From an uncultured Rubrobacteraceae bacterium (GTDB lineage: Bacteria > Actinomycetota > Rubrobacteria > Rubrobacterales > Rubrobacteraceae), in the NCBI GenBank assembly GCA_902806065.1, contig CADCVE010000074.1:1-64000 (forward strand): a stretch of DNA of 64,000 nucleotides, written 5' to 3'. Below the pieces are notes generated by a model that worked only from the letters and a program-made list of their open reading frames with translations, made no database searches and had not been told where the DNA came from. The position numbers and the translations under genes were made by a program. This document shows, in pieces, positions 7,151-37,472 of the stretch. Numbering within the stretch: the stretch's first letter is position 1; the number at the start of each line of letters is the position of its first letter.

Positions 7151-9148
7151 CTACTCTTCGGGGGCCGTCTGCATCCCGTACTTCGCGTTGACCTTCGCAC
7201 GCCATTCGAGTAGTTCGCGGCGGTATTTCTCCAGCTCTTCGGGGGAGCGTTGCCCGGCGAGGTTCTGGCGTTCGGATGGGTCTTTGGAGAGGTCGAAGAC
7301 TTCCTCGGGCTTATCGTCGAAGTGGTAGATGTACTTCTCATTGCCCTGTAGCCTCGCCACGCATCCCTTCTCGTTCCAGCAGCTAAACATAAGGGTACGG
7401 TTCGTGCTGACCGGACCGAGGAGAGAGCTACCCGGGTAGGCGCCGCCTTCGACCTGGTAGCCCAGCAGATCGGCGATGGTCGGCAGAACGTCGAGCTGGG
7501 TCACCGGCCCTTCGAGGGTCGCGCCGTCCTGGAACTGCCTGGGGTCGTGGAAAAGCATAGGTATCTTGAGGCCTTCTTCGTAGATCGTGTTGTCGTGCTG
7601 GAAGCGGCCGTGCTCCCCGAACCCCTCGCCGTGGTCCCCAAGAATCACAAAAACCGTGTCCTCGTAGAGCCCGAGCTTCTTGTACTGGTCGAAGAGGTTT
7701 TTGAGGAAGAAGTCCTGGCTGCGGACGCTGTTGAGGTAGCGGTTGACCACCTCGTTGTTGGTGAACTCCTTGCTCCCGTAGCGATCCGAGGGGGCGAGGT
7801 AATCGTGGTGCGGGGCCGAGGTGAGGTAGGTGGCGAGAAAGGGCTCGTCCTTGTTCTCCTGCAGCCACTTGCGGCTTGGCTCCAGCATGACATCGTCCTC
7901 GTAACCGAAGTAGTTCGTCTGCTCGAAGCCCTCCGTGTCCATGCTCTCTATCGAATAGAACTCCTCGTAGCCAAGATTCTCCATTATCTTCGGGCTTCTC
8001 TCGAAGCTCGACGACTGCGACATGAAGTAGGCGGAGTTGTACCCCTGCTCATTCAAGAGTTCGGGCAGGCACGTAGAAGGCACGGCGTCGTCGCGTGCGC
8101 CAAGGAGCATCGTCCCCCAGCGGTCCAGTGGCGGCTCGACGCCACAGTTGGTCGCGGTGAGAGCGTTATGAGTGTGGGGTACTACCGTGTAAGCCTTTTG
8201 TACCAGGAGGCTATCTCTTGCCAACTGATCCAGGAACGGGGTCGTGTCGAGTCCCTGCTGATTGTAGGGAGTAGTCGAGCCCGCGCGGGTGGATTCGAGG
8301 AAGATCATGACGACGTTGCGCTTCTCGGACTCTGGGCCGGATCCACTGGCGGACCCTTCAGCGGGGACGAGACTCGCCTCCGGGGGCGGCGCGGCTACGG
8401 CCGGGTCTACAGGGGCCGCTGCGAGCTCGTCGCTCTCGGCTACCTCGGCCGCGGTCGTCACCACGTTGACGAAGGCGTCGCGGGAGAAGGCCTTGCTAGC
8501 ACCCGTCGAGCTACCGCCGGGTATCAGGGAGAACGAGAATGTCGCGTACGCCGCGAGGGCCACGCCACTCACGCGCAGCCAGGAGACACCCGTCGGCCGG
8601 AGTTCGGGGAAGCCACGCCACCGACTGACGAGGCGTGTTACCAGCCAGGGACCCAGGATAGCATAGAAGACGATGGCCAGAAGCAGCAGCAGGATGCCCG
8701 GTGTGATCTCGCTCAGCACGACGCTTCCCGTGCCCTCGGAGGAAGAGAGCAAGAGATAGACATATCCAGAGTCGAGCGTCGAGCCAGTAGTCTTGAAGTA
8801 CTGGTAGGCGACGGTCGTGATCAGGGTAATGGAGATCGTCATCAGGTGGAAGAGGCCGACGGCGATCCAACGATAAGCGCCCCTCCTCGCTACCGCGAAC
8901 AACCCCACCCAAAACAGTACATACCCCGCATTGAACAGAAGGTCCGAACGCATCAGCCCAAAGCCCCCGCAAAACCCAGGGTTCTCGGGCTGCGAGACGA
9001 CGAGGATGGCCTTCAAGACCAGATCGTACACAACGAAAGGGACCAGAAGCCCGAGCAAATACACCCAGTCGCGACGGCTCAACAGAGAACGCGGTTCGCT
9101 CCCCCGTGTCTCCAAGTTGCCGCTCCTCGATGTGCCTCCCGCCGCCAT
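7151..9148 (-). CDS. LtaS-like sulfatase-fold membrane protein (paralogue A)
   Basis: A 665-aa protein with five N-terminal membrane helices (about residues 28-200), an Ala/Pro-rich linker, and an extracytoplasmic alkaline-phosphatase/sulfatase-fold domain. The metal site is visible as NVVMIFLESTRA, a Thr nucleophile candidate in HTHNALTATNCG, and GDHGEGFGEHG. Domain order matches lipoteichoic acid synthases, which move phosphoglycerol from phosphatidylglycerol to a surface acceptor. Paralogues lie at 32856-34772 and 37473-39539; all three begin with RDWxYL in the first helix. The exact acceptor is unknown. The start at 9148 is only 9 nt from the -10 box. Confidence 0.85.
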   Translation of the reverse strand: MAAGGTSRSGNLETRGSEPRSLLSRRDWVYLLGLLVPFVVYDLVLKAILVVSQPENPGFCGGFGLMRSDLLFNAGYVLFWVGLFAVARRGAYRWIAVGLFHLMTISITLITTVAYQYFKTTGSTLDSGYVYLLLSSSEGTGSVVLSEITPGILLLLLAIVFYAILGPWLVTRLVSRWRGFPELRPTGVSWLRVSGVALAAYATFSFSLIPGGSSTGASKAFSRDAFVNVVTTAAEVAESDELAAAPVDPAVAAPPPEASLVPAEGSASGSGPESEKRNVVMIFLESTRAGSTTPYNQQGLDTTPFLDQLARDSLLVQKAYTVVPHTHNALTATNCGVEPPLDRWGTMLLGARDDAVPSTCLPELLNEQGYNSAYFMSQSSSFERSPKIMENLGYEEFYSIESMDTEGFEQTNYFGYEDDVMLEPSRKWLQENKDEPFLATYLTSAPHHDYLAPSDRYGSKEFTNNEVVNRYLNSVRSQDFFLKNLFDQYKKLGLYEDTVFVILGDHGEGFGEHGRFQHDNTIYEEGLKIPMLFHDPRQFQDGATLEGPVTQLDVLPTIADLLGYQVEGGAYPGSSLLGPVSTNRTLMFSCWNEKGCVARLQGNEKYIYHFDDKPEEVFDLSKDPSERQNLAGQRSPEELEKYRRELLEWRAKVNAKYGMQTAPEE

Positions 9149-9288: not shown

Positions 9289-12012
9289 CTAGCGTTGGCC
9301 GCTCAACTTCGCCACCCTTTTGTACAGGGTTTGAACGATACGGTCTTGAGGCTTTCCGTTCTCTCCCGCCCGTTCTAGCAGGCCGCGCACGTCGAGCGGC
9401 TCGCCGAAGATCACCGTGACCTTTGTCGGGCGTACGGTGGCCTTACCGCGTGGCATTGCTTTGTAGGTGCCGTGTATGGAGACTGGCACCACCGGCGTTT
9501 GAAAGTGTTCGAGGAGCATGCCGATGCCAGGCCTGAACTGTTGCAGTTCGCCGGAGGGCGAGCGCTCGCCTTCGGGGAACCAGATCAGGCTCTTCCCCCG
9601 CGCGAGCACCGCGGCGCCAAAGGCGAGGCTGGATACACCGGCCCGCTGGGGGTCTATAGGCACGACCCGCGCGAGCCTGCTAACGAGACGAGTGACAGGG
9701 TTCCCGAAAGCCCAGCCCTTCCAACCGGCCCAATACGTCCGGCTCAACACCCGGTAGTCGAGTGCCGCCGCGACCACGAACGAGTCCAGCAAACTCACGT
9801 GGTTTGGCGCTATGACGAATGAGCCCTTCTCCGGCAAGTTTTCGAGTCCCTCTACCCTCAGCCCGAACAACCCGCGCATCAGAGCCCGGTTGAGCAGAAA
9901 CAGGAGCCGCGACATCACCGACATCACCGACCCCAGCGGCTCGAGCCAACGCTTCTGGTCTTCGTCGAGCACCTCCTCGGGCTGTTTCAGTGGGGAGGCC
10001 CCGGATGGGGTTTCGCCGGAACCAGCCGCCTCCGCTACCTCACGCAGCAGGTCGCGGACGGTCTCGATGCCATCTATGGACTCCTCGTCGAGCTCCACGT
10101 TGGCGCTCTCCCCGATCTCCATGGTCAGGTTCACCCATTCCATGGAGTCCACGCCGAGGTCTAGCTGCGGGCTGCTGTCCGGGGTCAAGCGGACGTCGGT
10201 GTAGCGGCGGGAGAGCAGGTCCCAGACCTCGGCCGCTGCCTCGTTCTCCAGAAGGGCGCGGTCCTCCCCGGACATCTCCTCAGGAGAGATCGGCCCCGCG
10301 GCGCCTTCTACTTCCTCCTCACCCTCTTTCGCCCGGTCGTAGCGATCCTCCAATATATGACGGCGGAGCTTGCCGAGCTGCGTGTACTCCAACGGCTCGC
10401 GGGTGATCGCGTAGTCCGAGAGTCGCTGGTAGGAGGGCAGGCGTTTCGACCCCTCCTGGACCGCCCCGCGGATCGCCTGCTCGATCTCATCGTTCTCCTG
10501 TTGCCGGATCTCACCGACCTCCGGCACGATGACTGCGACGAGCCGCCCATCTTTTTGCAGCACCCCGACCTCACGAATGGCCGCACTCCGACTATATGCT
10601 TCCTCGACGTCCTCGGGCTGCACGTTCTTGCCGCCCTCGGTAACGATGAGCGTAGACGCGCGGCCGGTGACGTACAGGTAGCCGCTCTCGTCCAGGTAGC
10701 CGAGGTCTCCGGTGCGGAACCAACCGTCGTCCGTTAGGACCTCGGCGGTCTTTTCGGGCAAGTCGCGGTAGCCGGAGAAGACGCCGGGTCCGCGCGCCAG
10801 GATCTCCCCCTCCTTGCGGGCCTCGTCCGTCCGCCGCTCTTCCTCCGGTCCATCGGGCATGGCGGAAGGATCGATACGCACCTCGATGCCGGGTATCGGA
10901 CGGCCGACACTCTCCAGCTTCTTACCGTCGGGCATCTTCAGAGATAGTATCGGGGAGGTCTCGGTAAGCCCGTAGCCAATGGCGGTTCGCCAACCCAGAG
11001 CCTCCAGCTTCCGGGCGAGGCCGGGATCTAGCGCGGCGCCTCCAGAGGCGAGGACCCGCAGGTTCGGCCCGAGCCGGTTGCGCACCGGACGCAACAAGGG
11101 CTCGGCGATGCGCAGCCCGAGCCGGTCGTTCAGCCAGGAGTTCAGCCCGACACCGGCCTCAAAGAGCCTGACGGCGATATGGCCGCCGGCCTTTACTCGC
11201 TCTTCTATCCCGGAGTACAGTGCATCGTAGAGCCGCGGGACGCCCACGACCAGCGAGACCTCGCCCTCTTGAAGGGCGCGTATGATCTGGGGCCCGGTCA
11301 ACGCGTGGGGCATTACTATAGGCAACCCGGCCGCGAGCGGGGTGAGCATCCCGATCACGAACGGGTACACGTGATGCAGCGGCAGCGGCAGCATCACCCG
11401 GTCTTCTTCAACCAGGAGATCCGCCGCGAGCAACGTATCGAACTGGAACGCGAGGTTCCGATGAGTAAGCGGCACGCCTTTGGCCGTGCCAGTCGTGCCA
11501 GAGGTATAGAACAACGCCGCCCGATCTCCGGGTTCGGGTGAGGGCAACGGCGAGTTTATCTCCCGATCCAGGAGAAGATGCCGCCAACTACGCTCGTCGT
11601 CTTCTCCAGCGTCTAGCAGGATGGCTCTCGGTGCGGCCTCGACGTCCAAACTCTCCAGACGGCCAGCGTTTTCGGTGGAGGTAAAGATGAACCGGGCGCC
11701 GCTGTCGGTAAGGGCGTGGGCGAGCATCTCGTCACCAACCTGAGCGTCCAGAGGAACAACCACGGCCCCCGCCCCAAACGCGGCCAGACACGCCACGATC
11801 CACTCGACACGGTTACCGGCCAGCAGCGCTACGTGATCGCCACGTCCAACGCCAGCCTCCGCCAGACCGCTAGACAGTCGCCGCGTGTGATCGGCGAGTT
11901 CGGCGTAGGACCAGCGCTCCATGCCCTTCTTGTGCAGCGCCAGCAACGCCGGCCGGTCGCCGCGCCCATGCAGCGTGTCTAGAAGGGAATGCACCGTGCG
12001 TGGCTCGCTCAT
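9289..12012 (-). CDS. Acyl-ACP synthetase / ACP / PlsC acyltransferase fusion
   Basis: A 907-aa three-part enzyme. Residues about 1-570 are an AMP-forming ligase with the P-loop FYTSGTTGTAKGVPLTHRN and YGLTETSP. Residues about 590-680 are a carrier domain with the phosphopantetheine Ser in LGVDSMEW. Residues about 690-900 are a PlsC acyltransferase with NHVSLLD (the H-x4-D catalytic pair) and FPEGERSPSG. The plan resembles E. coli Aas plus an inserted carrier domain, so it probably activates a fatty acid, holds it on its own carrier and esterifies it to a lysophospholipid or glycerophosphate. A GGGAGAG site precedes the ATG. It is likely to feed membrane or surface lipid synthesis. Confidence 0.85.
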   Translation of the reverse strand: MSEPRTVHSLLDTLHGRGDRPALLALHKKGMERWSYAELADHTRRLSSGLAEAGVGRGDHVALLAGNRVEWIVACLAAFGAGAVVVPLDAQVGDEMLAHALTDSGARFIFTSTENAGRLESLDVEAAPRAILLDAGEDDERSWRHLLLDREINSPLPSPEPGDRAALFYTSGTTGTAKGVPLTHRNLAFQFDTLLAADLLVEEDRVMLPLPLHHVYPFVIGMLTPLAAGLPIVMPHALTGPQIIRALQEGEVSLVVGVPRLYDALYSGIEERVKAGGHIAVRLFEAGVGLNSWLNDRLGLRIAEPLLRPVRNRLGPNLRVLASGGAALDPGLARKLEALGWRTAIGYGLTETSPILSLKMPDGKKLESVGRPIPGIEVRIDPSAMPDGPEEERRTDEARKEGEILARGPGVFSGYRDLPEKTAEVLTDDGWFRTGDLGYLDESGYLYVTGRASTLIVTEGGKNVQPEDVEEAYSRSAAIREVGVLQKDGRLVAVIVPEVGEIRQQENDEIEQAIRGAVQEGSKRLPSYQRLSDYAITREPLEYTQLGKLRRHILEDRYDRAKEGEEEVEGAAGPISPEEMSGEDRALLENEAAAEVWDLLSRRYTDVRLTPDSSPQLDLGVDSMEWVNLTMEIGESANVELDEESIDGIETVRDLLREVAEAAGSGETPSGASPLKQPEEVLDEDQKRWLEPLGSVMSVMSRLLFLLNRALMRGLFGLRVEGLENLPEKGSFVIAPNHVSLLDSFVVAAALDYRVLSRTYWAGWKGWAFGNPVTRLVSRLARVVPIDPQRAGVSSLAFGAAVLARGKSLIWFPEGERSPSGELQQFRPGIGMLLEHFQTPVVPVSIHGTYKAMPRGKATVRPTKVTVIFGEPLDVRGLLERAGENGKPQDRIVQTLYKRVAKLSGQR

Positions 12013-16024: not shown

Positions 16025-17140
16025 CTAATAAAACACGTCTTTCTTTAGCTTGTAGTACAGGCGGTAGTAGATCGGCTCGAACCTGTACCATACGGCCGCC
16101 CGAACCGGTTTGATCGGTAGGTCAAAGCAGCCGAGAAAGTTCACTACCTCCCCGCCGAAGCCTACCTTGAACCTGTAGACACCCAGCGCCGGGTCGTCCT
16201 CGCTCATGTTCTCCGGCTTCTGCGCGCCGACCATATCATAGTACGTCATGCCGCGTTGCTTCGCCCAGCGCATTACCTCCCACTGCAAACGATGCGTTGG
16301 CATGAGGTTGCGCTTTTTGGAGCCCGAGGCGCCGTGCATGTACCAGTACTTCCCGCCAAAGGTGAAGACATAGATACCGGCGAGCGGCGTACCCTCGTGG
16401 GTAGCGAAGAAGAAGCGTCCCTGGCCCGCATCGTACATCGTCTTCATCATCGCGTGCATGTAGTTTTGGGACCTGCGCATGACGAAGCCCTCTTTGCGAT
16501 CCTCCATCTCCTCCATCCACCCGTATAACGTCGTCCAGGCCTCCTCGAAGTCTGGTTCGACAACCTCGACGCCTTTTTTAGCGGCGAGCCGGATGTTGTA
16601 GCGCGTCTTGCTCTTCATGCGCGCGAGCAGATCCTCTTCAGTCGCGCTCAGGTCCATGAGCAAAGTATGCTTGAAGTTAAGGTCGTAGCGAGCCTTCCGG
16701 AAACCGACGCTATCAAGAAGAGCCTTCACGTCGGTTCGCTCGTCGAAGACCTCCGGCTCTATCTTGACAGTGTGAGCACCCCGGCGTTCCGCTATTGTCC
16801 GCGCGCCCTTGAAGAAGGCGCGAATGGCCTCCTCGTCGTCCCAATTCAACCAGGGTCCCTTGGTGCAGTACCACAGGGAACCGGGGACGAAGGGACCGGT
16901 GTCGTACGAGAGGAACTGCCCGAGTCCCACCACCTCACCGCCTCTCTCCAGCACCAGACGTACGGGCTTCCAGCCCAGATGTTTCTTGAACTTGCCCCAT
17001 TCGTAGCCCTGCAGGACGTGACCACCCCCCGGTAAGCTTTGAAGCCAGCCGTCCCACTCGCCCCTGGTGGCCTCTAACTCCGGTACCTCCCTCACTGTGT
17101 ACAGGGAGGTGCCGTCGCGAGCGGCTTGCGGCAGCCTCAC
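16025..17140 (-). CDS. FemAB/FemX-type aminoacyltransferase (copy 1)
   Basis: A 371-aa peptidoglycan-bridge-type aminoacyltransferase with the double-GNAT FemX/FemAB fold. Recognisable stretches are GGHVLQGYEWGKFKKHLGW, LWYCTKGPWLNW, RMKSKTRYNIRLAAKKGVEV and GKYWYMHGASG. Family members attach amino acids from aminoacyl-tRNA to lipid II; exosortase-associated FemAB proteins are a separate branch with unknown donor. The GTG start shares its G with the TAG stop of the decarboxylase, so the two are coupled. It is the last gene of the GNAT-ACP-ligase-decarboxylase operon, which suggests that it transfers the product made by that pathway. A paralogue lies at 34769-35911. Confidence 0.85.
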   Translation of the reverse strand: MRLPQAARDGTSLYTVREVPELEATRGEWDGWLQSLPGGGHVLQGYEWGKFKKHLGWKPVRLVLERGGEVVGLGQFLSYDTGPFVPGSLWYCTKGPWLNWDDEEAIRAFFKGARTIAERRGAHTVKIEPEVFDERTDVKALLDSVGFRKARYDLNFKHTLLMDLSATEEDLLARMKSKTRYNIRLAAKKGVEVVEPDFEEAWTTLYGWMEEMEDRKEGFVMRRSQNYMHAMMKTMYDAGQGRFFFATHEGTPLAGIYVFTFGGKYWYMHGASGSKKRNLMPTHRLQWEVMRWAKQRGMTYYDMVGAQKPENMSEDDPALGVYRFKVGFGGEVVNFLGCFDLPIKPVRAAVWYRFEPIYYRLYYKLKKDVFY

Positions 17141-18480
17141 TAAATCAGTGCCTCCTGGCCTTTGAGCACGTCCTCCGGCTTGCCTACGGGCCGCAAGAGG
17201 TGTGCCTCACCCTGCCATACCAGCACCTCCGCCGGGGTCGGGTGGCTGAGGAAGCCGAGGTTGCTGGCGCTGTATCCGTACGCCCCGCTGTGGAACACGC
17301 CGATGAGATCCCCGACCAGCGGCTCCTCCAGCGGGATGTTGGTCCCAAACGTGTCCAGCGGCGTGCAGCACGGACCGACCACCGCAACACCCTCCCCCGG
17401 ATCCCCGGGTTCCGCGGACACGCGGCTCAGGTTCAGGAGCGGGTAGGCCTTGCGGAAGACCTGCCCCATGTTGCCGGTCGCGGTGAGGTGATGGTTCATG
17501 CCGCCGTCGGTGGTTACGAAAGTCTTGCCCTTCATGCCTTTGACGTCCACGACGCGGGTGACGTATACGCCAGCGTCGGCGACGAGGTAGCGGCCGAGCT
17601 CGAAGACGAACCGGCAGCCGGAGAAGCGCGGGTCGGAGCGGTATTGGGCGAGGAGTCCTTGAAAGCCTTCACCGAAGCTCTCCAGGTCGAACTCCTCCAT
17701 CTTCTCGAAGTACGGGACGCCGAAGCCGCCGCCGAAGTCGACCATCTCCAGCGGCTCGCCGGCCAGGTCCGCGGTCTGGAGCGCCAACTCGAAGATGTTG
17801 CGGCAGTGCTCGATGAGCGCGTCCGCGTCGAAGACCTGGGTCGCGGTGTACACGTGGATACCACGCAGGACCAGGTGGTCCGGGTGGGCCAGCGTCCGTC
17901 TGACGGCTTCGGCGAGGTCGTCTTCGTCCAGGCCGAACTGGCCGACCGTCCCGCCCATGCGCATCCCCGATCCCATGAGTTGAGCAGCCGGGTTGATCCT
18001 CAGGCCCACCCCGATCTTCTTGCCCTCCCGCTCCGCGACGGCGGCGAGGCGGTCTATCTCGTTCAACGACTCCACGTTGACCGCGAAGATACCCTCGTCC
18101 ACGGCCATCTTCAACTCCTCATCGGTCTTGGCCGGACCCGCGAAGACGATATCCTCCGGGGCGAACCCTGCGGCCCGCACCACCACCAACTCACCGGAAG
18201 AGGCGACCTCAGCGCCGGTGAGGCGCTCGCGAGCTATGAGCTGGCACACGGCGAGGTTCGGATTCGCTTTGACAGAATACGTAACTTCCACGTCCCCGCC
18301 CAGAGCGGCCCGCACGCGGCGAACACGTTCGGAGATCATCTCCCCGTGGTAGAGGTAGAAGGGTGTACCGTACTCTTTGGCTATGTGGCTTATGGGTGCC
18401 CCGCCGGGGGCGAACTCACCGTTTTGCCACCCGCCAAGACGCTCGGCCAGTGCGTGAGCCTTATCCGTTTGTGTAAGCAT
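17140..18480 (-). CDS. PLP-dependent decarboxylase, DAP/ornithine decarboxylase fold (BtrK-like)
   Basis: A 446-aa alanine-racemase-fold decarboxylase. The PLP Lys is K71 in TYSVKANPN; GGGFGVPY binds phosphate; ELGRYLVADAG and the Cys motif GPCCTPLDTFG complete the active site, with HSGAYGYSASNLGF near the end. The CTPLD form, rather than the CESGD form of LysA, is what I associate with exosortase-A-associated decarboxylases and with BtrK, which decarboxylates glutamyl-ACP. The neighbouring ACP and AMP ligase fit an ACP-bound substrate. An ordinary diaminopimelate decarboxylase is the main alternative, but the gene context argues against it. It overlaps the ligase by 20 nt. Confidence 0.85.
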   Translation of the reverse strand: MLTQTDKAHALAERLGGWQNGEFAPGGAPISHIAKEYGTPFYLYHGEMISERVRRVRAALGGDVEVTYSVKANPNLAVCQLIARERLTGAEVASSGELVVVRAAGFAPEDIVFAGPAKTDEELKMAVDEGIFAVNVESLNEIDRLAAVAEREGKKIGVGLRINPAAQLMGSGMRMGGTVGQFGLDEDDLAEAVRRTLAHPDHLVLRGIHVYTATQVFDADALIEHCRNIFELALQTADLAGEPLEMVDFGGGFGVPYFEKMEEFDLESFGEGFQGLLAQYRSDPRFSGCRFVFELGRYLVADAGVYVTRVVDVKGMKGKTFVTTDGGMNHHLTATGNMGQVFRKAYPLLNLSRVSAEPGDPGEGVAVVGPCCTPLDTFGTNIPLEEPLVGDLIGVFHSGAYGYSASNLGFLSHPTPAEVLVWQGEAHLLRPVGKPEDVLKGQEALI

Positions 18481-20038
18481 TGCTAATCCCCTTGCGGTCT
18501 ATCTTACCGGAGCCGGTCTTCGGCAGATCGTCTTGAATCGTTATTGCCTTTGGCACCATATACGGTGGCCCATTCTTCGCGGCGTACTCCCGGATCTCCT
18601 CGACGACGCTCTCGTCGCCGCCATCCTTCAGCGAGACGACAGCTATGACCTGGTGACCGAGATCCGGGTCGGGCAGGCCAAAGGCGCACGCTTCGTGTAC
18701 CAGGCCCGAGCTAATGAGCAGGTTCTCTACCTCCTCGGGGCTCATCCGGTAGCCCTGAGACTTGATCATGCCGTCCTCGCGGCCTATGAAGTACAGGAAC
18801 CCCTCTTCGTCCCGCCGCACGTTGTCGCCAGAGTAGACGACCCTCTCCATGTCCAGTAGCTCGGGCGGGGCGAGAGGGTTCGGACGGTACGCCTTGCGCG
18901 TCGCCTCCTCCTTGCCCCAGTAGCCCATCGCAACCGTCGGGCCGCGGTGGACCAACTCGCCGACCTCACCGGGGGCACACTCCTTGCCTTCTTTGTTTAT
19001 CACCATGATCTGGGTATCCGGAATGGCCTTCCCAATACACTCGGTGCCGCGTCCGATCTCCTCGGGCGGCAGGTAAGTCGAGCGGAACGCCTCTGTGAGC
19101 CCGTACATCAGATATATCTTCGTCCCCGAGGGCTCTAGCAGACGCCGCAGCTCGTCGAGGTTGGCCTGGGGGATACGGCCCCCGGTGTTGGAGATGTAGC
19201 GCAGATGCATGAGCGGCTCCTGCTCGATGGACTTTACGCTGCGGAGCAAGAGCGACCACAGCGGCGGCACTCCAGCTACGCCCGTGATCTCATGCCGGCG
19301 CAACCCCTTCAGTAGATCCCCCGGCAGCCTCGAACGCTGTAAGGCCAGCGTAGCGCCCACACGCAGCGCCGTGGTGAACTGATTCAACCCGGCGTCGAAG
19401 TTCAGCGGGAGCGCCGAGAGGATACGGTCCTCCTTGGTATTCTCCAGGTACGTGGAGACGATCTGAGCGCCAACTACGAGGTTGCGCTGGCTCGTCGAGA
19501 CGCCTTTCGGCATCCCGGTCGATCCGGAGGTGTATAAGATGGTCCCCAGATCTACCTCCGAGACCTGCCGCGTCTCCCGCGGAGAGTCACCGCTCTGAAG
19601 CACCTCCGCCAGGTCCGTAAGCTCGCCGGAGACACCCTCGGAGTCCGGACGGTCGCCCTTGTAGAAAGCTCTGTCGGTAGTCCCCGGCTCCATGGCTGCG
19701 AGCTTGTCGGAGTCCCCGATCATCACGCGCACGTCGCAGTCTTTGGCGACGTAGCTAACCTGGCGTGGTTTGAAGAGGGGGTTGAGGTTCACAAAGGCGG
19801 CGCTTGCCTGCGAGGCGGCGAGCATCGCCACTATCGCCTCCCAGGATTTCTCCATGAGTATGCCGACCCGGTCGCCCTTCTCCACGCCCGCGTCCTGGAG
19901 GGCGGCGCAGAGGGCGCTGCTCTGGCGCGCCATGTCCTCGTAGGTGTACTCGGCCTTGCCGTCCACGATCGCCGTCTTGCCCGGGTAAAGCTCGGCGGAG
20001 TTGCGGAGCAGGTCGTGGAGGGTAAATTCCGGGTACAT
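18461..20038 (-). CDS. AMP-forming acyl/aminoacyl ligase (ANL superfamily)
   Basis: A 525-aa adenylating enzyme. The P-loop is ILYTSGSTGMPKGVS; YGLTEAF, YSGDNVRRDEEG, the hinge GREDGMIKSQGYRMSP and the catalytic Lys near the end in KTGSGKIDRKG are all present, so it should be active. It probably loads a carboxylic or amino acid onto the ACP encoded 2 nt upstream. The same pairing is seen for exosortase-A-associated 'acyl-CoA ligase' genes. The acid it selects cannot be read from the sequence. Confidence 0.9.
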   Translation of the reverse strand: MYPEFTLHDLLRNSAELYPGKTAIVDGKAEYTYEDMARQSSALCAALQDAGVEKGDRVGILMEKSWEAIVAMLAASQASAAFVNLNPLFKPRQVSYVAKDCDVRVMIGDSDKLAAMEPGTTDRAFYKGDRPDSEGVSGELTDLAEVLQSGDSPRETRQVSEVDLGTILYTSGSTGMPKGVSTSQRNLVVGAQIVSTYLENTKEDRILSALPLNFDAGLNQFTTALRVGATLALQRSRLPGDLLKGLRRHEITGVAGVPPLWSLLLRSVKSIEQEPLMHLRYISNTGGRIPQANLDELRRLLEPSGTKIYLMYGLTEAFRSTYLPPEEIGRGTECIGKAIPDTQIMVINKEGKECAPGEVGELVHRGPTVAMGYWGKEEATRKAYRPNPLAPPELLDMERVVYSGDNVRRDEEGFLYFIGREDGMIKSQGYRMSPEEVENLLISSGLVHEACAFGLPDPDLGHQVIAVVSLKDGGDESVVEEIREYAAKNGPPYMVPKAITIQDDLPKTGSGKIDRKGISNAYTNG

Positions 20039-20040
20039 GT

Positions 20041-20295
20041 TCAGGCCGCCACCTTGCTCTCCACGAGCCCGGCGATGGCGTCTATGGAACCGAAGTTCTC
20101 TTCGTCAAGCTCCTCGTCCTCCACTACGATGTCGAACCTCTCCTCCATGAACATCACGAGCTCCACCGTCTGAAGCGACGTCAACATCCCGTTCTCGATC
20201 AGGGGATAGTCGTCCGACACCTCTCCGCTCCCCGTTACGTTGTCCTTGAGCCATCCGCGGATCTCGGTCCTCGCGTCACCGTTGCTAATTGCCAT
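20041..20295 (-). CDS. Acyl carrier protein
   Basis: An 84-aa acidic carrier protein. The phosphopantetheine Ser is S40 in GMLTSLQTVELV, where Thr replaces the usual Asp before Ser. Helices and the conserved DEENFGSIDAIAGLV tail fit the ACP fold. Its ribosome site TAGGAGG overlaps the stop of the preceding GNAT gene, and the ligase follows after 2 nt. It should carry the acid activated by that ligase for decarboxylation and transfer. A decayed copy lies at 21569-21755. Confidence 0.9.
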   Translation of the reverse strand: MAISNGDARTEIRGWLKDNVTGSGEVSDDYPLIENGMLTSLQTVELVMFMEERFDIVVEDEELDEENFGSIDAIAGLVESKVAA

Positions 20296-20310
20296 ATCTC
20301 TCGATACCTC

Positions 20311-21516
20311 CTATCTCGTCCAGAAAGCTGCTTCTCCATCACCAATACTATAAGCCCAGTTGGACAGGTCCTTCGCCGCCTCGTGCAGGCCAGGGTCCTT
20401 GAACTTGACCAGCAACACGTTGCGCCGCCCCTTGCGAGGGAAGAAGCCCAACCTCCGCAGATCGTCCGCCCCCAGCGAGGTAGACGACCGCAGATACCTG
20501 TACCTTACAATAGACACCCCCGCCCGTCTGAAAAAACGAACCGCCTCACCCAGCAACGCCCGCGCGACGTCCTGGCGTCCGGGCAACACCGTCAGGTCCA
20601 GCGGGTAGCCATCCTGACCGCTCCCGGTCAGCTTCAGCACCGCATAACCGAGCAAACCCTCTCTGCCTCTAACGCCGAGCACCGTTACCGGTGTCTGGGG
20701 AGAGGTAGGACCGTATCGCCAGCGCAAGAACGCCGCGTCCTTCTCGGGCAGGCAGGGCACGACCGCGGCGATCTTCTCGAAGAGCACATCGAAAGATTCG
20801 TCGAAGCCCTCCAGGACCTCCGCCTTCAAATCGCTTGCGGAAGTGCCGAGCATGACTCTATCCGTCAACCGGAGGGCGCCGTTGAGGAGCCCCTTAACGG
20901 GCGCGGGGAGTGGCACGCGCGGACGCGGGGCGAGCGCCGCGGCTTGCTCTTCCACGCCCGGCGGAAGTTCTGTACCGGCCTGGCCCTCGGGTTCATCAGC
21001 GGACGCGGGGCGAGGTTGCCGGTTCAGGAGCCTACCTATTGGACCGGGGATCATTGGCATGGGAAGCCTGGAGACGTCGAGTAGCTTCGCCGCGTATTGT
21101 AGCTCTCCCGCGACCTCGGAGCCGAGGCGGGTCTCGACGGCGATAACGTTCGGGAGCATGTCTATTGCCACACAGTTCTCGACCGTGCGGTAGAACCTTC
21201 GCATCAACGCCAGGGCGTGGAAGGCATACTGTGGGAGCACCATGAAATCGCCGGGAGTATGGGCAACGACTCGCTTTCCATTGATCCTGTAGTACTGCGG
21301 CGTCGCCGCCAGGTGGCCAACCACTTCATCCTCTTCGGTCACCAGGATCCAACGATGCATCTCGCTCGCCAGCGGGTGACTCTCGAACCAGCGATAGAAA
21401 GCAGTGTAATAATCGACATCGTGGACTTCGGGGAAGTACGGATACGAGAGGATGCGTACCCTCGCTACACCTTCCTCGAGCTCCGGGTTCTCGTGCGGCC
21501 GGACCGCGACCTTCAC
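20311..21516 (-). CDS. GNAT-fold acyltransferase-like protein (copy 1)
   Basis: A 401-aa protein beginning MKVAVRPHENPELEEG. It has an N-terminal GNAT-like half (WILVTEEDEVVGHLAATPQ), a variable Pro/Ala/Glu-rich middle (about residues 165-205) and a C-terminal half with CLPEKDAAFLRWRYGP and FPRKGRRNVLLVKFKDPGL. The whole reads as a tandem GNAT-type fold akin to FemAB relatives. It precedes the ACP, so it may use the ACP-bound group as donor. Paralogues are at 21771-22973 and 35926-37179. The GTG start has GAGGCAGGG before it. Specific activity is unknown. Confidence 0.7.
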   Translation of the reverse strand: MKVAVRPHENPELEEGVARVRILSYPYFPEVHDVDYYTAFYRWFESHPLASEMHRWILVTEEDEVVGHLAATPQYYRINGKRVVAHTPGDFMVLPQYAFHALALMRRFYRTVENCVAIDMLPNVIAVETRLGSEVAGELQYAAKLLDVSRLPMPMIPGPIGRLLNRQPRPASADEPEGQAGTELPPGVEEQAAALAPRPRVPLPAPVKGLLNGALRLTDRVMLGTSASDLKAEVLEGFDESFDVLFEKIAAVVPCLPEKDAAFLRWRYGPTSPQTPVTVLGVRGREGLLGYAVLKLTGSGQDGYPLDLTVLPGRQDVARALLGEAVRFFRRAGVSIVRYRYLRSSTSLGADDLRRLGFFPRKGRRNVLLVKFKDPGLHEAAKDLSNWAYSIGDGEAAFWTR

Positions 21517-21568
21517 GGTCCCTGCCTCAGGTATACAGAGAACCGCCCAGCATCCTCGTGAGTCGAGA

Positions 21569-21755
21569 TCACGCCGCCGCCTTCGTGGTCTTTGCTAACC
21601 TTGCAGCGGCATCCATACGGCCGAAGCACTCCTCTATCGGCATTGGCTCTATCGCCGGCATCCGAGGCATAGTAGTCGACCACTCCACGGCTCCCCGCTA
21701 CGGCTCCGGACCGCTCGCACGCCACGACGATAGTATCCTGCGTGTCGACTGCCAT
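21569..21755 (-). pseudogene. Decayed duplicate of the acyl carrier protein
   Basis: The upstream sequence TAGGAGGTATCG...ATATGGC matches that of the intact ACP, and the last 20 codons in another frame read EECFGRMDAAARLA...AAA then TGA (21571-21569), mirroring EENFGSIDAIAGLV...AA of the intact ACP. The length of 187 nt is not a multiple of three and about 65 nt are missing, including the Ser loop. It marks a tandem duplication of the GNAT-ACP unit in which this ACP died. Confidence 0.85.
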
Positions 21756-21770
21756 ATTTCCCGATACCTC

Positions 21771-22973
21771 CTACCTGAACCAGAAAGTCGCTTCTCCGTC
21801 CCCGATGCTGTAGGCCCAGTTGCCGAGGTCCTTTGCCATCTTGTGCAGGCCGGGGTCCTTGAACTTGGCAAGTAGCATGTTGCGTCTCCCCTTGCGAGTG
21901 TAGAAGCCGAAGCGCCGCAGGTCCGCGAGCCGGGGTGTTGCGGGCGAGTCGAGGTACCGGTACCTGATTATAGGGACCTTCGCCCGCCTGAAGAAACGAA
22001 CCGTCTCCCCGAGCAGCGCCCGCGCGACATCGCTGCGCCCCGGCAGCACCGACAGGTCCAGCGGGTAGCCGTCCCGGTCTTTCTGGTTCACCCCGAGCAC
22101 GGCGTAGCCGAGGAGTCCCTCCCTACCCCTCACGCCGATCACGGTGACGAGCGGGTACGCGGGTGAACCGGGACCGTATCGCCAGCGCAGGAACGTCGCG
22201 TCCTTCTCGGGCAGGCAGGGCGCTACAGCGGCGATCTTCTCGAAGAACACATCGAACGATTCGTCGAAGTCCTCCAGGACCTCCACCTTCAGGTTGCCGC
22301 TAGAGGCGCCGATAAGCGCCCTGTCGAGTATCCGGAGACCCCCGTTCATCAGGCTCGTTACCGGAGCGGGGAAGGGCACGCGCGGGTGCTTGGGCGGCAC
22401 GACGTTCTCGTGAACCTCGATACCAGACATGGCCGAATCCTCTTCCGGGTGGACGGGCGCTGGTTCTTTGAGATTCAGGAGCCTGGATATCGGGCCGGGG
22501 ATGCGTGGCATAGGGAGTCTGGAGACGTCGAGCAACTTCGCCTCATACTGCAGTTCACCCGCTACCTCGGCCCCGAGCCGGGTCTCGACCGCTATAACCG
22601 TGGGGAGCATATCCATGGCTACGCAGTTCTCCGCCGTCCGGAAAAAGCGGCGCATCAGCGAGAGGGCCTGAAAGCCGTATTTTGGTAAGACCTGGTAATC
22701 GGCGGGGGTGTGCGCGATCACCGTTCGGCCGTTGATCCGGTATGCTTGGGGCATCGCCGCCAGATGGCCGACTACCTCGTCCTCCTCGGTCACCAGAACC
22801 CAGCGATGCATATGGTCCTCCGCCAGAGGGTGGCTCTCCAACCAGCGCCACACGCCGTGATGCCATTCGAGGTCATAAGCCTCGGGTACGTGAGGGAAGA
22901 TGAGGGTGCGCAGCCTGTCGATGCCGCGCTGGAGATCGGCACTATGGTCGAATGGTCTGACTGCTACCTTCAT
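21771..22973 (-). CDS. GNAT-fold acyltransferase-like protein (copy 2)
   Basis: A 400-aa close paralogue of the 20311-21516 protein, with the same MKVAVRP start, LVTEEDEVVGHLAAMPQAYRI, CLPEKDATFLRWRYGP and KGRRNMLLAKFKDPGLHKM. The middle linker (about residues 165-195) differs most. It is the first gene of the minus-strand operon and has its own promoter. Being tandem and both intact, copies 1 and 2 may differ in acceptor. Confidence 0.7.
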   Translation of the reverse strand: MKVAVRPFDHSADLQRGIDRLRTLIFPHVPEAYDLEWHHGVWRWLESHPLAEDHMHRWVLVTEEDEVVGHLAAMPQAYRINGRTVIAHTPADYQVLPKYGFQALSLMRRFFRTAENCVAMDMLPTVIAVETRLGAEVAGELQYEAKLLDVSRLPMPRIPGPISRLLNLKEPAPVHPEEDSAMSGIEVHENVVPPKHPRVPFPAPVTSLMNGGLRILDRALIGASSGNLKVEVLEDFDESFDVFFEKIAAVAPCLPEKDATFLRWRYGPGSPAYPLVTVIGVRGREGLLGYAVLGVNQKDRDGYPLDLSVLPGRSDVARALLGETVRFFRRAKVPIIRYRYLDSPATPRLADLRRFGFYTRKGRRNMLLAKFKDPGLHKMAKDLGNWAYSIGDGEATFWFR

Positions 22974-32855: not shown

Positions 32856-34772
32856 TTGAGCTTTTTAGGTGCGCTCATAGGACTACGGGATTGGGTCTAC
32901 TTGTTCAGCCTCCTCGTACCCCTTTTCGTTTACAACCTCGTTCTAAAGGCCTCCAGCGTGGCCTCGATACCCGGGCTCTCTCCGACCTTTGATCTGATGC
33001 GCTCGGACGTGTTCTTCAACCTGGCGTACGCGTTGTTCTGGGTCGGCATCTTCGCGGCGGTGCACAACAGGGGACTCCTGCGTCGGGTCGTGGTCATCCT
33101 CTTCCACGCCAGCACGCTGCTCATCGTCATCGTGACCACGTTCGCCCACCAGTACTTCCAGGTAACCGGTACCACGCTCGACTACGGCATAGTCGCTTTA
33201 TGGTTGCCCCAATTCGGGGAGGTATTGCCGGTCCTCGCCTCTGGGGCCACGCTCTGGGTCTGGGCGCTCCTCTTCGCCGCCATCTGTTATGTGATCCTAG
33301 GCCCGTTGCTCGTAACGCGCGCCATCGAGCGCGTTAGCCGGTGGCGAGGAGGTCCGGAGAGATCCCGGGCCAGAAGGCCCGAGAACTCCTTTCTGGTCCC
33401 TATCGGGCTGTTGCTCCTGGCGTTCGGTTTTGGCTTTCTTTCGCTGTTGATCGGCGCCCGTTCGACTGACTACTCGGCGGGAGCCAGCGTATCGTTCGTA
33501 AGGGACCCGTTCGTCAACTTGATCCTGACGGGAGCCAAGACAGCGATCACCGAGGACGACCCGGATTTCGGTGTTATCGGGCAGACCGTCGAGCATCCGG
33601 CCGCGAACTCCAGCCTCGTGCCGTCGCCCCAAACGGAGAAACGTAACGTCGTCCTGATCCACCTGGAGTCCACTCGCGCGCAGTCAGTGACACCTTACAA
33701 CGAGGACCTCGAGACAATGCCCTTTCTGAATGAGTTAGCGAAGAGCAGCCTCCTCGCCGAGCGAGCATATACCATCGTACCGCACACCTCCAAAGCGACT
33801 GTCTCGGTCAACTGCGGCATAGAACCCCACCTCGTCCAGCCAACCACAGAGGCAAACCCTGACGGTATCCCCGTACCGTGCCTGGCCAGCCTCCTCAAAG
33901 AACAGGGGTACGGCACCGGTTTCTTTCAGTCTTCCACCGAGAGTTTCGAGGACTTCGAGGGTCTCGTGAAGAACCTCGGCTATGAAGACTACTACCCGCT
34001 GGAATCCATGGATACGGAGGGCTTCGAGCAGACGAACTACTTTGGCTACGAGGACGACATCATGCTAGAGCCCAGCGAAGAGTGGCTCGAAGAGCAAGGG
34101 GACCAACCTTTCCTGGCCGAGTACCTCACGGGCACGGGACATGACGATTACCGATGTCTCTCCACTCGTTACGAGAGCGAGGACTTCTCGGAAAATGTCA
34201 TACTGAACCGCTACCTCAACTGCCTCCGCTATCAGGACGTCTTCTTAAAGAACCTCATCGACCAGTACAAGGATCTGGGGCTCTATGACAACACGATTTT
34301 CGTCGTCTACGGCGACCACGGCGAGGGCTTCGGTGAGCACCGCCGGTTCCAGCACGACGACAACATGTGGGAAGAGGGAATCAAGGTACCTTTGTTGATC
34401 CACGCTCCCGGGTGGTTTGAAAACGGTGAGCGGGTTGAGGAGCTATCGAACCACACAGACGTTCTGCCTACCGTACTGGAGATGCTCAACTATAAGGTAG
34501 AGAACGGAGAGTACCCGGGCTACTCTCTCCTACACGATCTGCCTGAGGACCGTACCCTCATGTTCAATTGTTTCCATGACAAAGCCTGCGCGGCAAGTCT
34601 GAAGGGCTCCGAGAAGTACATCTACCACTACGGTAACCAGCCCGACGAGATCTTCGACCTCTCTGAGGACCCCCTCGAAAAAGAGAATCTAGCGGACGAA
34701 CGTACCAAAGAAGTAGAGGAGCGGCGCAAAGCCCTCATCGAGTGGCGCTCGAGCGTCAACGCCGCGTATTAG
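32856..34772 (+). CDS. LtaS-like sulfatase-fold membrane protein (paralogue B)
   Basis: 638 aa, same plan as paralogue A: RDWVYLFSLLVPLF first helix, five membrane segments to about residue 210, then the outer catalytic domain with VVLIHLESTRAQSVTPYN, PHTSKATVSVNCG and GDHGEGFGEH. The reading starts at a TTG with no close ribosome site. In another frame the ATG at 32824 gives MRRLETINRTS and stops at TGA 32857-32859, overlapping this TTG; the join matches the N-terminus of paralogue C (RRTARSSFLGA), so a one-base shift may have moved the start. Its 3' end overlaps the convergent FemAB gene by 4 nt. Confidence 0.85.
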   Translation: MSFLGALIGLRDWVYLFSLLVPLFVYNLVLKASSVASIPGLSPTFDLMRSDVFFNLAYALFWVGIFAAVHNRGLLRRVVVILFHASTLLIVIVTTFAHQYFQVTGTTLDYGIVALWLPQFGEVLPVLASGATLWVWALLFAAICYVILGPLLVTRAIERVSRWRGGPERSRARRPENSFLVPIGLLLLAFGFGFLSLLIGARSTDYSAGASVSFVRDPFVNLILTGAKTAITEDDPDFGVIGQTVEHPAANSSLVPSPQTEKRNVVLIHLESTRAQSVTPYNEDLETMPFLNELAKSSLLAERAYTIVPHTSKATVSVNCGIEPHLVQPTTEANPDGIPVPCLASLLKEQGYGTGFFQSSTESFEDFEGLVKNLGYEDYYPLESMDTEGFEQTNYFGYEDDIMLEPSEEWLEEQGDQPFLAEYLTGTGHDDYRCLSTRYESEDFSENVILNRYLNCLRYQDVFLKNLIDQYKDLGLYDNTIFVVYGDHGEGFGEHRRFQHDDNMWEEGIKVPLLIHAPGWFENGERVEELSNHTDVLPTVLEMLNYKVENGEYPGYSLLHDLPEDRTLMFNCFHDKACAASLKGSEKYIYHYGNQPDEIFDLSEDPLEKENLADERTKEVEERRKALIEWRSSVNAAY

Positions 34773-35911
34773 TAGAAAACGTTGTTCTTGAGCTTGTAGT
34801 ACAGGCGGTAGTATAAAGGCTCGAGCTTGTACCATGCGGCGGCGCGCGCACGTTTGACCGGCAGGTCGTAACAACCTGGGGAGTCCGAGATCTCTCCGCC
34901 AAAGCCCTCCTTGAACTTGTAGACGCCCCACAGAGAACTGCTCTCGTCCAGGTCCTCCAGCTTGGGCACGCCCACCATATCGTAGTGGGTCAGGCCGCGC
35001 TCTTTGGCCCAGCGCATTACCTCCCACTGCAAGAGGTAGTTGGGCTTGAGATTGCGCTTCTCATCGCCCGAGGCGCCGTACATGTACCAGTACTTCTCCC
35101 CGAAGGTAAAGACGTAAATGCCGGCCAGCGGCGTCCCTTCGTGCCTGGCAAAGAACAGACGTCCCTGGCCCGTATCGTACATACACCGCGTCACGGCGTA
35201 GAGATAATCGCGCGACCTTCGGAGGCTGTAGCCTTCTTTGCGCTCGGACGTGTGCTTCATCCACGCGTAGAAAATCTCCCAGCCTTCCTCGAACTCCGGT
35301 TCGACCACCTCGATGCCCTTCTTGGCGGCCAGGCGGACGTTGTAACGTGTTCTGCCCTTCATCTTCGCGAGCAGTTCTTCCTCCGGCAGGCTCACGTCCA
35401 CGACCAGGGTTGTTTTCAAGTTCAGGTCGTAGCGGGCCTTGCGGAAGCCGATCTCGCCGAGAACGTCCTTTACGTTTTTCACGTTTTTCTCTTGCTCCAG
35501 GACTTCGGGCTCTATCTTCACGGTGTGCGCTCCCTCGCGCCGCGCGATGTCCCGCACACCCTCGAAGAAGGCCCGTACGGCCTCCTCGTCGTGCCAGGGC
35601 AGCCAGGGGCCTTTGGTGCAGTACCACAGGGTGCCAGGGACCGGAGCCGTATCGTAGGCGAGGAACTGCCCGAGCCCTACCACCTCACCATCTCTCTCGA
35701 GTACCACGCGGACGGGCCGCCAGCTCAGACGTTTCTTGAACTCACCCCACTCGTAGCTCTGCAGGACGTGGCCGCCGCCCGGCGAGTTGTGGAGCCAGCC
35801 ATCCCACACGTCACGGGTTACGCTTCGGGCCTCTCTCACCGTGTAGGGGGTGGTGGATCGCACGGACCCCCGCACCTCTGCGGTCAGGTTGTCGTCGGTG
35901 TCGGCCGCCAT
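34769..35911 (-). CDS. FemAB/FemX-type aminoacyltransferase (copy 2)
   Basis: About 380 aa, clearly paralogous to the protein at 16025-17140: GGHVLQSYEWGEFKKRLSW, LWYCTKGPWLPW, KGRTRYNVRLAAKKGIEVVE and EKYWYMYGASG are shared, and both end in LKxxVFY. I prefer the ATG at 35911 (AGAGGT upstream); a TTG at 35938 overlaps the end of the GNAT gene. GNAT plus FemAB, without the ACP-ligase-decarboxylase middle, is a second version of the cassette and sits between two LtaS-like genes. Confidence 0.85.
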   Translation of the reverse strand: MAADTDDNLTAEVRGSVRSTTPYTVREARSVTRDVWDGWLHNSPGGGHVLQSYEWGEFKKRLSWRPVRVVLERDGEVVGLGQFLAYDTAPVPGTLWYCTKGPWLPWHDEEAVRAFFEGVRDIARREGAHTVKIEPEVLEQEKNVKNVKDVLGEIGFRKARYDLNLKTTLVVDVSLPEEELLAKMKGRTRYNVRLAAKKGIEVVEPEFEEGWEIFYAWMKHTSERKEGYSLRRSRDYLYAVTRCMYDTGQGRLFFARHEGTPLAGIYVFTFGEKYWYMYGASGDEKRNLKPNYLLQWEVMRWAKERGLTHYDMVGVPKLEDLDESSSLWGVYKFKEGFGGEISDSPGCYDLPVKRARAAAWYKLEPLYYRLYYKLKNNVFY

Positions 35912-35925
35912 AGTGCGTGTACCTC

Positions 35926-37179
35926 TTACCTCGTCCAAAAGCTTCCCTCACCGTCACCCACAGTGTACGACCAGGCAGCGATGGCGCGGGCCAGCTCGTG
36001 CATCCCGGGGTCCTTGAATCTAACCAGCAGGCTGTTGCGCCTCCCCTTGCGATAGAAGAACCCCAAACGCCGCAGATCGTCCGGGCGGGGCGAGGTGGAC
36101 GACCCGGCGAACCTGTACCTGATGATCTGCACCCCAGCCCGCCGGAAGAAACGGACCGACTCCCGGAGCAGCGTCTGGGCCACGTCACGGCGCTCGGGGA
36201 GCGTCGTGATGTCGAGCACGTAGCCATCCTCGCCCGTCGAGGTCACCATGAGCACGGCGTACCCGAGGAGGCCCTCCTCACCCTTCACGCCCAAAACGGT
36301 CACCGGATACTGGGGAGAGCCGGGGCCGTAGCGCCAGCGCAGGAACGCCGCGTCTTTCTCCGGCACGCAAGTCACCCCGGAGGCGACCTTCTCGAACAGC
36401 TCGTCAAAGGACTCGTCGAACTCTTCGATCACCTCCGCCCTCAGGCCGCCCCCGAAAACACTACCCAATGCTTCGTCGACCAACCGGAGCCCGCCATTCA
36501 GGAGTCCCTTTATCGGCGCGGGGATCGACGCTCGCGGACGCACCAGGGGCGGAGTGACGTGCTCCTCTGCGTTTTCCGCGTCCAACGGTTCCGCTTCGGA
36601 GCCCCCTGGGGTTTCGGGGCGGCTCGCGTACCCGCGAGCGGTCACGGTCTGTCCCCGGAGGTTTAGAAGCCTTCTTACCGGCGAAGGAATCGACGGGGCC
36701 GGGAGCCGGGAGACGTTGAGGAGCTTCGCCGCGTATTGCAACTGTCCCGCCACCTCGGCCCCCAAGCGCGACTCGACCTCGATCACCGCAGGCACCATAT
36801 CGCAGGATACGTAATTTTCGGTGGCGCGGAAGAACGCGCGCATCAGGGTAAGGGCCTGGAAGCCGTGCCTAGCGTGCACCATGTAGTCGCAGGGCGTATG
36901 GGCGACGACCCGCTGACCGTTGATCCTGTAATACTGGGGCGTCGCCGCCAGGTGTCCCACCACCTGATCATCGTCATCCACCGCAACCCAGCGATGTAAC
37001 CCATCTCCCAGCGGATGGCTCTCCAACCAGCGGTAGGCGGAGGAGTAGAACTCGACGTCCCGGGTCTCGGGGAATTGGGGGTACGCGTGCATGCGTAGCC
37101 TCGCTACACCGCTTTCGAGTGTGGGGTCGTCGAGCGACCGTACCCTTACCTTCGTCGTTCGAACCCCGAAATCACCCAT
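35926..37179 (-). CDS. GNAT-fold acyltransferase-like protein (copy 3)
   Basis: 417 aa, paralogue of copies 1 and 2, with ARLRMHAYPQFPETRDVEFY, VGHLAATPQYYRINGQRVVA, CVPEKDAAFLRWRYGPGSP and KGRRNSLLVRFKDPGMHEL. The middle linker is longer (residues about 165-215). It is directly followed by FemAB copy 2, mirroring the association in region I. Function unknown beyond the fold; it may use the same donor. Confidence 0.7.
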   Translation of the reverse strand: MGDFGVRTTKVRVRSLDDPTLESGVARLRMHAYPQFPETRDVEFYSSAYRWLESHPLGDGLHRWVAVDDDDQVVGHLAATPQYYRINGQRVVAHTPCDYMVHARHGFQALTLMRAFFRATENYVSCDMVPAVIEVESRLGAEVAGQLQYAAKLLNVSRLPAPSIPSPVRRLLNLRGQTVTARGYASRPETPGGSEAEPLDAENAEEHVTPPLVRPRASIPAPIKGLLNGGLRLVDEALGSVFGGGLRAEVIEEFDESFDELFEKVASGVTCVPEKDAAFLRWRYGPGSPQYPVTVLGVKGEEGLLGYAVLMVTSTGEDGYVLDITTLPERRDVAQTLLRESVRFFRRAGVQIIRYRFAGSSTSPRPDDLRRLGFFYRKGRRNSLLVRFKDPGMHELARAIAAWSYTVGDGEGSFWTR

Positions 37180-37254
37180 ACGCTAACCCTTTCACACTTA
37201 TACGTAACTCCCCTATTCCATAAGAACCGTCCCCCCGGCCGGCTCCAGAGGTGA

Positions 37255-37462: not shown

Positions 37463-37472
37463 CCCTCGCACT

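What the first reader, a model, noticed from the sequence alone, without database searches (positions are those of the whole stretch)
16025..22973. Exosortase-A-style aminoacyl-ACP cassette without an exosortase
Seen: one minus-strand operon encodes two GNAT-fold proteins, an ACP with Ser40, an AMP-forming ligase, a PLP decarboxylase with a CTPLD active site, and a FemAB protein, with overlaps or 1-2 nt gaps for the last four. Established: exosortase A loci carry a ligase, a PLP decarboxylase and a FemAB protein of these families, and BtrI-J-K in butirosin synthesis load, then decarboxylate, glutamyl-ACP. Inference: the operon loads an amino acid on ACP, decarboxylates it to an omega-amino-acyl group, and a FemAB or GNAT enzyme transfers it to a surface polymer. 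The pathway in such a Gram-positive-type cell, beside LtaS-like genes, seems undescribed.
Basis: partly seen in the sequence, partly recalled or inferred. Interest (0 to 1): 0.8.

Follow-up and report, generated by a model that had tools for sequence, protein, structure and literature searches.

The report
Beta-alanyl-ACP cassette with tandem-GNAT transferase
A conserved bacterial gene set in Rubrobacter and its relatives looks able to load an amino acid (most likely aspartate) onto a carrier protein, clip off a carboxyl group to give a beta-alanine-like unit, and hand it to a new type of transferase; it hints at what a similar, long-unexplained gene set in exosortase loci does.

Summary
The operon is real: GNT2-GNT1-ACP-ligase-PLP decarboxylase-FemAB, in a Rubrobacter genome without a detectable exosortase. 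It is not a member of the exosortase-A cassette: all three HMMs score under cutoff (585/592, 421/478, 33/260). Ligase and decarboxylase form a separate, well-supported sister clade. The FemAB gene is the optional part: across 26 related loci in Rubrobacteraceae and Thermomicrobia/Chloroflexota the constant unit is GNT-ACP-ligase-decarboxylase, and GNT occurs in exactly the 21 of 61 genomes that carry the decarboxylase. The decarboxylase is BtrK-like, with CTPLD in place of LysA's CE(S/T)GD; a separate canonical LysA exists. The ligase keeps, in 17 of 17 homologues, the Asp/Ser(Thr)/Arg triad by which VinN recognises the amino and carboxyl groups of (3-methyl)aspartate; none of five comparable ligases of the same genome does. 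The closest working precedent is therefore VinN-VinL-VinO (and BolO-BolC-BolN). Prediction: Asp becomes beta-aspartyl-ACP, then beta-alanyl-ACP, which the tandem-GNAT protein transfers. The triad is also present in exosortase-annotated ligases, so the prediction extends to them. Acceptor and biochemistry are untested.

The parts
21771..22973 (-). GNT2, 400 aa tandem-GNAT protein, 68% identical to GNT1
20311..21516 (-). GNT1, 401 aa tandem-GNAT protein, predicted aminoacyl transferase; found in exactly the genomes that carry the decarboxylase
   Evidence: AlphaFold pLDDT 82, Foldseek best hits Eis-like acetyltransferases and N-myristoyltransferases; co-occurrence 21/21 with and 0/40 without
20041..20295 (-). 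stand-alone acyl carrier protein, phosphopantetheine Ser40 (LTSL)
18461..20038 (-). AMP-forming amino-acid:ACP ligase with VinN-type triad D215/T285/R319
17140..18480 (-). PLP-dependent (fold III) BtrK-like aminoacyl-ACP decarboxylase, CTPLD motif
16025..17140 (-). FemAB-family (FemX-like) aminoacyltransferase; optional member of the cassette
21513..21755 (-). possible decayed second ACP between GNT2 and GNT1 (weak evidence)
   Evidence: frameshift-tolerant score 45; shuffle maximum 38; control windows maximum 33
34769..37179 (-). second FemAB-GNT pair (FemAB2 34769-35938, GNT3 35926-37179) without ligase or decarboxylase; related module

Best explanation
The operon makes an omega-aminoacyl group on a carrier protein and transfers it. 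The AMP-forming ligase adenylates the side-chain carboxyl of an amino dicarboxylate, most likely L-aspartate, and loads it on Ser40-phosphopantetheine of the ACP (beta-aspartyl-ACP). The BtrK-like PLP enzyme removes the alpha-carboxyl while the group is held on the ACP, giving beta-alanyl-ACP. The tandem-GNAT protein GNT1 (with its paralogue GNT2), the constant partner of the module, then transfers the beta-alanyl group to an amine or hydroxyl acceptor, probably an envelope precursor or polymer. The FemAB protein adds a further residue or acts on the same acceptor in those strains that have it. Shown by sequence: enzyme families, the substrate-recognition triad, loss of the DAP-recognition motif, conserved linkage and absence of an exosortase. 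Inferred: aspartate as substrate, GNT as transferase, envelope acceptor. My estimates: decarboxylation on an ACP 0.8; Asp to beta-alanine 0.55; GNT as transferase 0.5; envelope acceptor 0.4.
For: DC: best PDB match BtrK at 286 bits, against 188 for the next family (6knh) and 161 for the best further diaminopimelate decarboxylase; CTPLD in all 18 homologues, CE(S/T)GD in LysA proteins, and a separate LysA in this genome. LIG: a search with its substrate-binding fragment finds only VinN in the PDB. [quoted passage not shown] VinN loads 3-methylaspartate on the stand-alone ACP VinL and VinO decarboxylates it there (PMC11284099); FlvN uses Asp. No glutamate mutase E subunit (PF06368) in the genome, which argues for Asp over 3-methyl-Asp. 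Linkage: ACP 24/24, LIG 25/25 and GNT 23/23 of loci not cut by a contig end; FemAB in 11 of 26. GNT in 21/21 genomes with DC and 0/40 without.
Against: No biochemistry. Over full length the best PDB match of LIG is a LgrA adenylation domain (250 bits) ahead of VinN (203 bits), and a global fold search does not single out VinN. Triad position T285 is Thr in most rows, where VinN has Ser. Glu to GABA is not excluded. The GNT fold matches are distant (TM about 0.5, 9-12% identity), and such folds usually use acyl-CoA. No acceptor gene is identified; the MurJ, VanW-domain and sulfatase-fold neighbours are only suggestive. The co-occurrence partly reflects transfer of one operon.
Confidence: 0.5

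Rival explanations
1. Same logic, but the ligase loads glutamate through its gamma-carboxyl and the decarboxylase makes gamma-aminobutyryl-ACP, as in butirosin (BtrI-J-K).
For: The decarboxylase is closest in the PDB to BtrK, which acts on glutamyl-BtrI (PMC7857480).
Against: The ligase pocket carries the VinN/BolO aspartate triad. Butirosin uses an ATP-grasp ligase (BtrJ, from general knowledge), not an AMP-forming one.
Confidence: 0.2
2. The module makes a building block for a secreted small molecule (macrolactam- or lipopeptide-like), not a surface modification.
For: The closest characterised modules (VinN-L-O, BolO-C-N) serve PKS/NRPS pathways; a Streptomyces plasmid homologue of DC lies beside an NRPS gene.
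Against: Inspection of the window and the 20-kb homologous loci shows no PKS or NRPS partner; neighbours are cell-envelope genes (MurJ, VanW, beta-lactamase-like, sulfatase-fold). Related ligase-decarboxylase-ACP sets lie in exopolysaccharide loci.
Confidence: 0.15
3. The FemAB protein, not GNT, is the transferase for the ACP-bound group; GNT is accessory.
For: By NCBI's family names, exosortase-A systems also pair a FemAB protein with this kind of ligase and decarboxylase; FemAB homologues of at least 50% identity occur only in genomes with the cassette (13 of 13).
Against: FemAB is missing from about half of the loci, including Rubrobacter marinus, while GNT is always there. FemAB matches FemX enzymes, which are known to use aminoacyl-tRNA (donor from general knowledge).
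Confidence: 0.1
4. The decarboxylase is a diaminopimelate or ornithine decarboxylase paralogue on a free amino acid, and the cluster is fortuitous.
For: TIGR01048 (lysA) scores 280 bits, near its cutoff of 298.
Against: The CExxD glutamate and the distal Arg/Tyr region of LysA are replaced; a full LysA is encoded elsewhere; LIG and DC reading frames overlap by 20 nt here and the order is conserved across phyla.
Confidence: 0.05

Closest known systems
VinN-VinL-VinO (vicenistatin) and BolO-BolC-BolN (bolagladin) beta-aminoacyl-ACP modules
   Same: AMP-forming ligase with the Asp/Ser/Arg recognition triad, stand-alone ACP, PLP decarboxylase acting (VinO shown, BolN proposed) on the ACP-bound amino dicarboxylate (PMC11284099, PMC7756342)
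   Different: Those feed PKS/NRPS assembly lines in secondary-metabolite clusters; here the partner is a tandem-GNAT protein among envelope genes and no PKS/NRPS is seen
Exosortase-A-associated ligase/decarboxylase (TIGR03098/TIGR03099)
   Same: Clear homology (585 and 421 bits), CTPLD and the D/T/R triad shared with annotated members
   Different: Both score under the curated cutoffs; separate clade; no exosortase; FemAB is not TIGR03019; a GNT partner
BtrI-BtrJ-BtrK (butirosin)
   Same: PLP decarboxylase closest to BtrK among solved structures; ACP-bound substrate
   Different: The loading ligase is AMP-forming here, ATP-grasp in butirosin (general knowledge)
DltA-DltC-DltB (D-alanylation of teichoic acids)
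   Same: Aminoacyl-carrier-protein donor; ACP distantly like DltC (28 bits)
   Different: Decarboxylase present; ACP under the DltC cutoff (52 bits); no MBOAT transferase in the operon
FemX lipid II aminoacyltransferases
   Same: FemAB1 is in PF02388 and matches S. aureus FemX (126 bits)
   Different: Under the FemX equivalog cutoff (70 against 500 bits); optional in this cassette

Membership tests
Exosortase A (XrtA/PEP-CTERM) system | exosortase (PF09721) in the genome | tested here: not met
   0 matches in own genome and in 0 of 21 cassette-bearing genomes
Exosortase A (XrtA/PEP-CTERM) system | ligase at or over TIGR03098 cutoff | tested here: not met
   585.4 against 592.35 bits
Exosortase A (XrtA/PEP-CTERM) system | decarboxylase at or over TIGR03099 cutoff | tested here: not met
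   420.7 against 478.45 bits
Exosortase A (XrtA/PEP-CTERM) system | FemAB protein at or over TIGR03019 cutoff | tested here: not met
   32.9 against 260.35 bits
Exosortase A (XrtA/PEP-CTERM) system | PEP-CTERM target proteins | not tested
   not searched, since no exosortase was found
VinN-VinL-VinO-type beta-aminoacyl-ACP module | AMP-forming ligase with Asp230/Ser299/Arg331-type triad | tested here: met
   D215/T or S285/R319 in 17 of 17; absent in 5 of 5 comparable ligases of the genome
VinN-VinL-VinO-type beta-aminoacyl-ACP module | stand-alone ACP with phosphopantetheine Ser | tested here: met
   Ser40 invariant
VinN-VinL-VinO-type beta-aminoacyl-ACP module | BtrK-type PLP decarboxylase without the DAP-binding CExxD glutamate | tested here: met
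   CTPLD; BtrK best PDB hit
VinN-VinL-VinO-type beta-aminoacyl-ACP module | coupling to a PKS/NRPS assembly line | tested here: not met
   none seen in the window or homologous loci by inspection and window family scans; whole genome not searched
VinN-VinL-VinO-type beta-aminoacyl-ACP module | Asp or 3-methyl-Asp loading and decarboxylation on ACP | not testable with these tools
   needs purified enzymes
Diaminopimelate decarboxylase (LysA) | CE(S/T)GD motif and TIGR01048 cutoff | tested here: not met
   CTPLD; 280.5 against 297.9 bits; separate LysA with CETGD
Dlt D-alanylation system | DltC-type carrier at cutoff and an MBOAT (DltB) transferase in the operon | tested here: not met
   TIGR01688 28 against 52 bits; no MBOAT in the operon
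FemX lipid II aminoacyltransferase (NF047883) | equivalog cutoff | tested here: not met
   69.6 against 500 bits; only the wider PF02388 family is met

The most novel reading that the evidence does not exclude
A carrier-protein-based beta-alanylation system for the cell envelope: Asp is loaded on an ACP, decarboxylated there and transferred by a new tandem-GNAT family to a wall or polysaccharide acceptor. It is spread between Rubrobacteraceae and Thermomicrobia/Chloroflexota, and the same beta-alanyl-ACP chemistry underlies the unexplained ligase/decarboxylase pair of exosortase-A and rhizobial exopolysaccharide loci.
Probability: 0.35. Interest if true: 0.78.

Novelty: new variant of a known kind. 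Interest (0 to 1): 0.6.

Why it matters
I found no published function for the exosortase-A-associated ligase and decarboxylase in the library held. The VinN-type triad gives the first concrete substrate prediction I know of (aspartate to beta-alanyl-ACP) for the Rubrobacter cassette and for the annotated exosortase-type ligases, testable with one PPi-exchange assay. It also suggests a new kind of envelope aminoacylation, parallel to D-alanylation, and a new candidate transferase family.

Tried and rejected
Exosortase membership: rejected on four features. DAP decarboxylase: rejected on motif, scores and a separate LysA. FemAB as constant member: rejected on synteny. MurJ as a dedicated flippase paralogue: rejected, since the window copy is the only MurJ found in this genome, while some relatives hold two. 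Glutamate mutase for 3-methyl-Asp: not found. Global fold search of the ligase: not informative. GNT against the GNAT-like Shinella neighbour: no significant profile match. GNT against PHROGs: nothing. Promoter scan: nothing above chance. Literature searches for this cassette, for beta-alanine in exopolysaccharide and for a Rubrobacter marinus wall type gave nothing decisive.
Full report
WHAT IS THERE. The window lies in a Rubrobacter genome (G000, 3.75 Mb, 95.4% complete; the named close relatives are Rubrobacter species and R. marinus). The reported operon is present exactly as described: GNT2 (22973-21771), GNT1 (21516-20311), ACP (20295-20041), ligase (20038-18461), decarboxylase (18480-17140), FemAB (17140-16025), all minus strand, the last four overlapping or 2 nt apart, with coding-like GC3. 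There is no exosortase in the genome or in any of the 21 cassette-bearing genomes among 61 examined.

TESTING THE THREE NAMED HMMs. TIGR03098: 585.4 bits, cutoff 592.35. TIGR03099: 420.7, cutoff 478.45. TIGR03019: 32.9, cutoff 260.35. By contrast the Sinorhizobium meliloti pSymB pair scores 740 and 582, over both cutoffs, in an exopolysaccharide-type locus (glycosyltransferases, type I secretion) that also has an ACP. In trees the Rubrobacter/Thermomicrobia ligases (100/99) and decarboxylases (100/100) each form their own clade beside the clade of the annotated exosortase-type proteins. So ligase and decarboxylase are sisters of the exosortase-A type, not members, and the FemAB protein is of another subfamily (best PDB match S. 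aureus FemX).

WHAT THE CONSTANT UNIT IS. In 26 related loci (Rubrobacteraceae plus Thermomicrobia/Chloroflexota MAGs), every locus not cut by a contig end has GNT, ACP, ligase and decarboxylase; a close FemAB gene is found in only 11. R. marinus, a finished genome, has none near the cassette and no FemAB1 homologue at E 1e-30 in the genome (G002). Across 61 genomes GNT is present in exactly the 21 with the decarboxylase and in none of the 40 without; relatedness of the genomes means the nominal p value should not be taken literally. Thermomicrobia decarboxylases nest with Rubrobacter ones at 99/95 support, which suggests transfer of the cassette between phyla. The candidate for the last step is therefore GNT rather than FemAB. 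GNT1 models as two GNAT domains (pLDDT 82), with Eis-like acetyltransferases and N-myristoyltransferases as nearest folds at TM about 0.5.

DECARBOXYLASE. The best solved relative is BtrK, the glutamyl-[BtrI ACP] decarboxylase (286 bits, against 161 for 2p3e, a DAP decarboxylase). In the CxxxD motif LysA proteins of the family carry CE(S/T)GD; the cassette enzymes carry CTPLD in all 18 cases. BtrK has CTPED in the printed alignment. The genome has a separate, canonical LysA on another contig. Function on an ACP-bound substrate is thus likely but inferred.

LIGASE. Full-length PDB hits are NRPS adenylation domains, then VinN. A search with the substrate-binding stretch alone finds only two entries' sequences, 3wv4 and 3wvn, which I know as VinN. 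[quoted passage not shown] With a constant offset of 16 between that numbering and the PDB chain index, all three fall on D, S and R and align with D215, T285 and R319 here. D and R are invariant and the middle position is T or S in all 17 homologues. As a control, five comparable AMP-forming ligases of the same genome have none of the three, while three exosortase-type or near ligases from Sinorhizobium, Aureimonas and Shinella, and three further homologues from plasmid records, have all three. VinN-VinL-VinO loads 3-methylaspartate on an ACP and decarboxylates it there; FlvN uses Asp (PMC11284099). No glutamate mutase E subunit was found, so plain Asp is favoured. A caveat: the global fold comparison does not single out VinN.

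ACCEPTOR. Neighbours conserved with the cassette are MurJ, a VanW/PG_binding_4 protein and a beta-lactamase-like protein; this window adds three LtaS-like sulfatase-fold genes and a second FemAB-GNT pair. In the proteobacterial relatives examined the ligase-decarboxylase pair sits in exopolysaccharide-type gene clusters. These facts suggest an envelope acceptor but do not name it.

VERDICT. The operon works like VinN-VinL-VinO/BtrK chemistry, with an unusual constant partner. It is a new variant of a known kind, with a sharp and cheap test.

Noticed in passing
window 21513-21770, minus: Between GNT2 and GNT1 an 80-aa ORF begins MAVDT like the ACPs, and another frame reads EECFGRMDAAARLAKTTKAA, like an ACP C-terminus; this may be a decayed second ACP from a GNT-ACP duplication.
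   Followed up: partly
window 32856-39539: A second FemAB-GNT pair (34769-37179) lies between two LtaS-like sulfatase-fold genes on the other strand.
   Followed up: partly
window 7151-9148, 32856-34772, 37473-39539, 50919-52529: Four PF00884 sulfatase/phosphoglycerol-transferase-fold genes in one 64-kb window.
   Followed up: no
L090 (S. meliloti pSymB), L091 (Aureimonas), L092 (Shinella): Ligase, decarboxylase and ACP of exosortase-A type or near it in exopolysaccharide-type loci, with no exosortase annotated within 8 kb and unclassified 280-306 aa neighbour proteins.
   Followed up: partly
window 9289-12012, minus: A 907-aa fusion of acyl-ACP synthetase-like, carrier-like and acyltransferase domains, with homologues near the cassette in some relatives.
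   Followed up: no
L045:14213-14476: A short FemAB fragment beside the cassette of a relative, which suggests secondary loss of the FemAB gene there.
   Followed up: no
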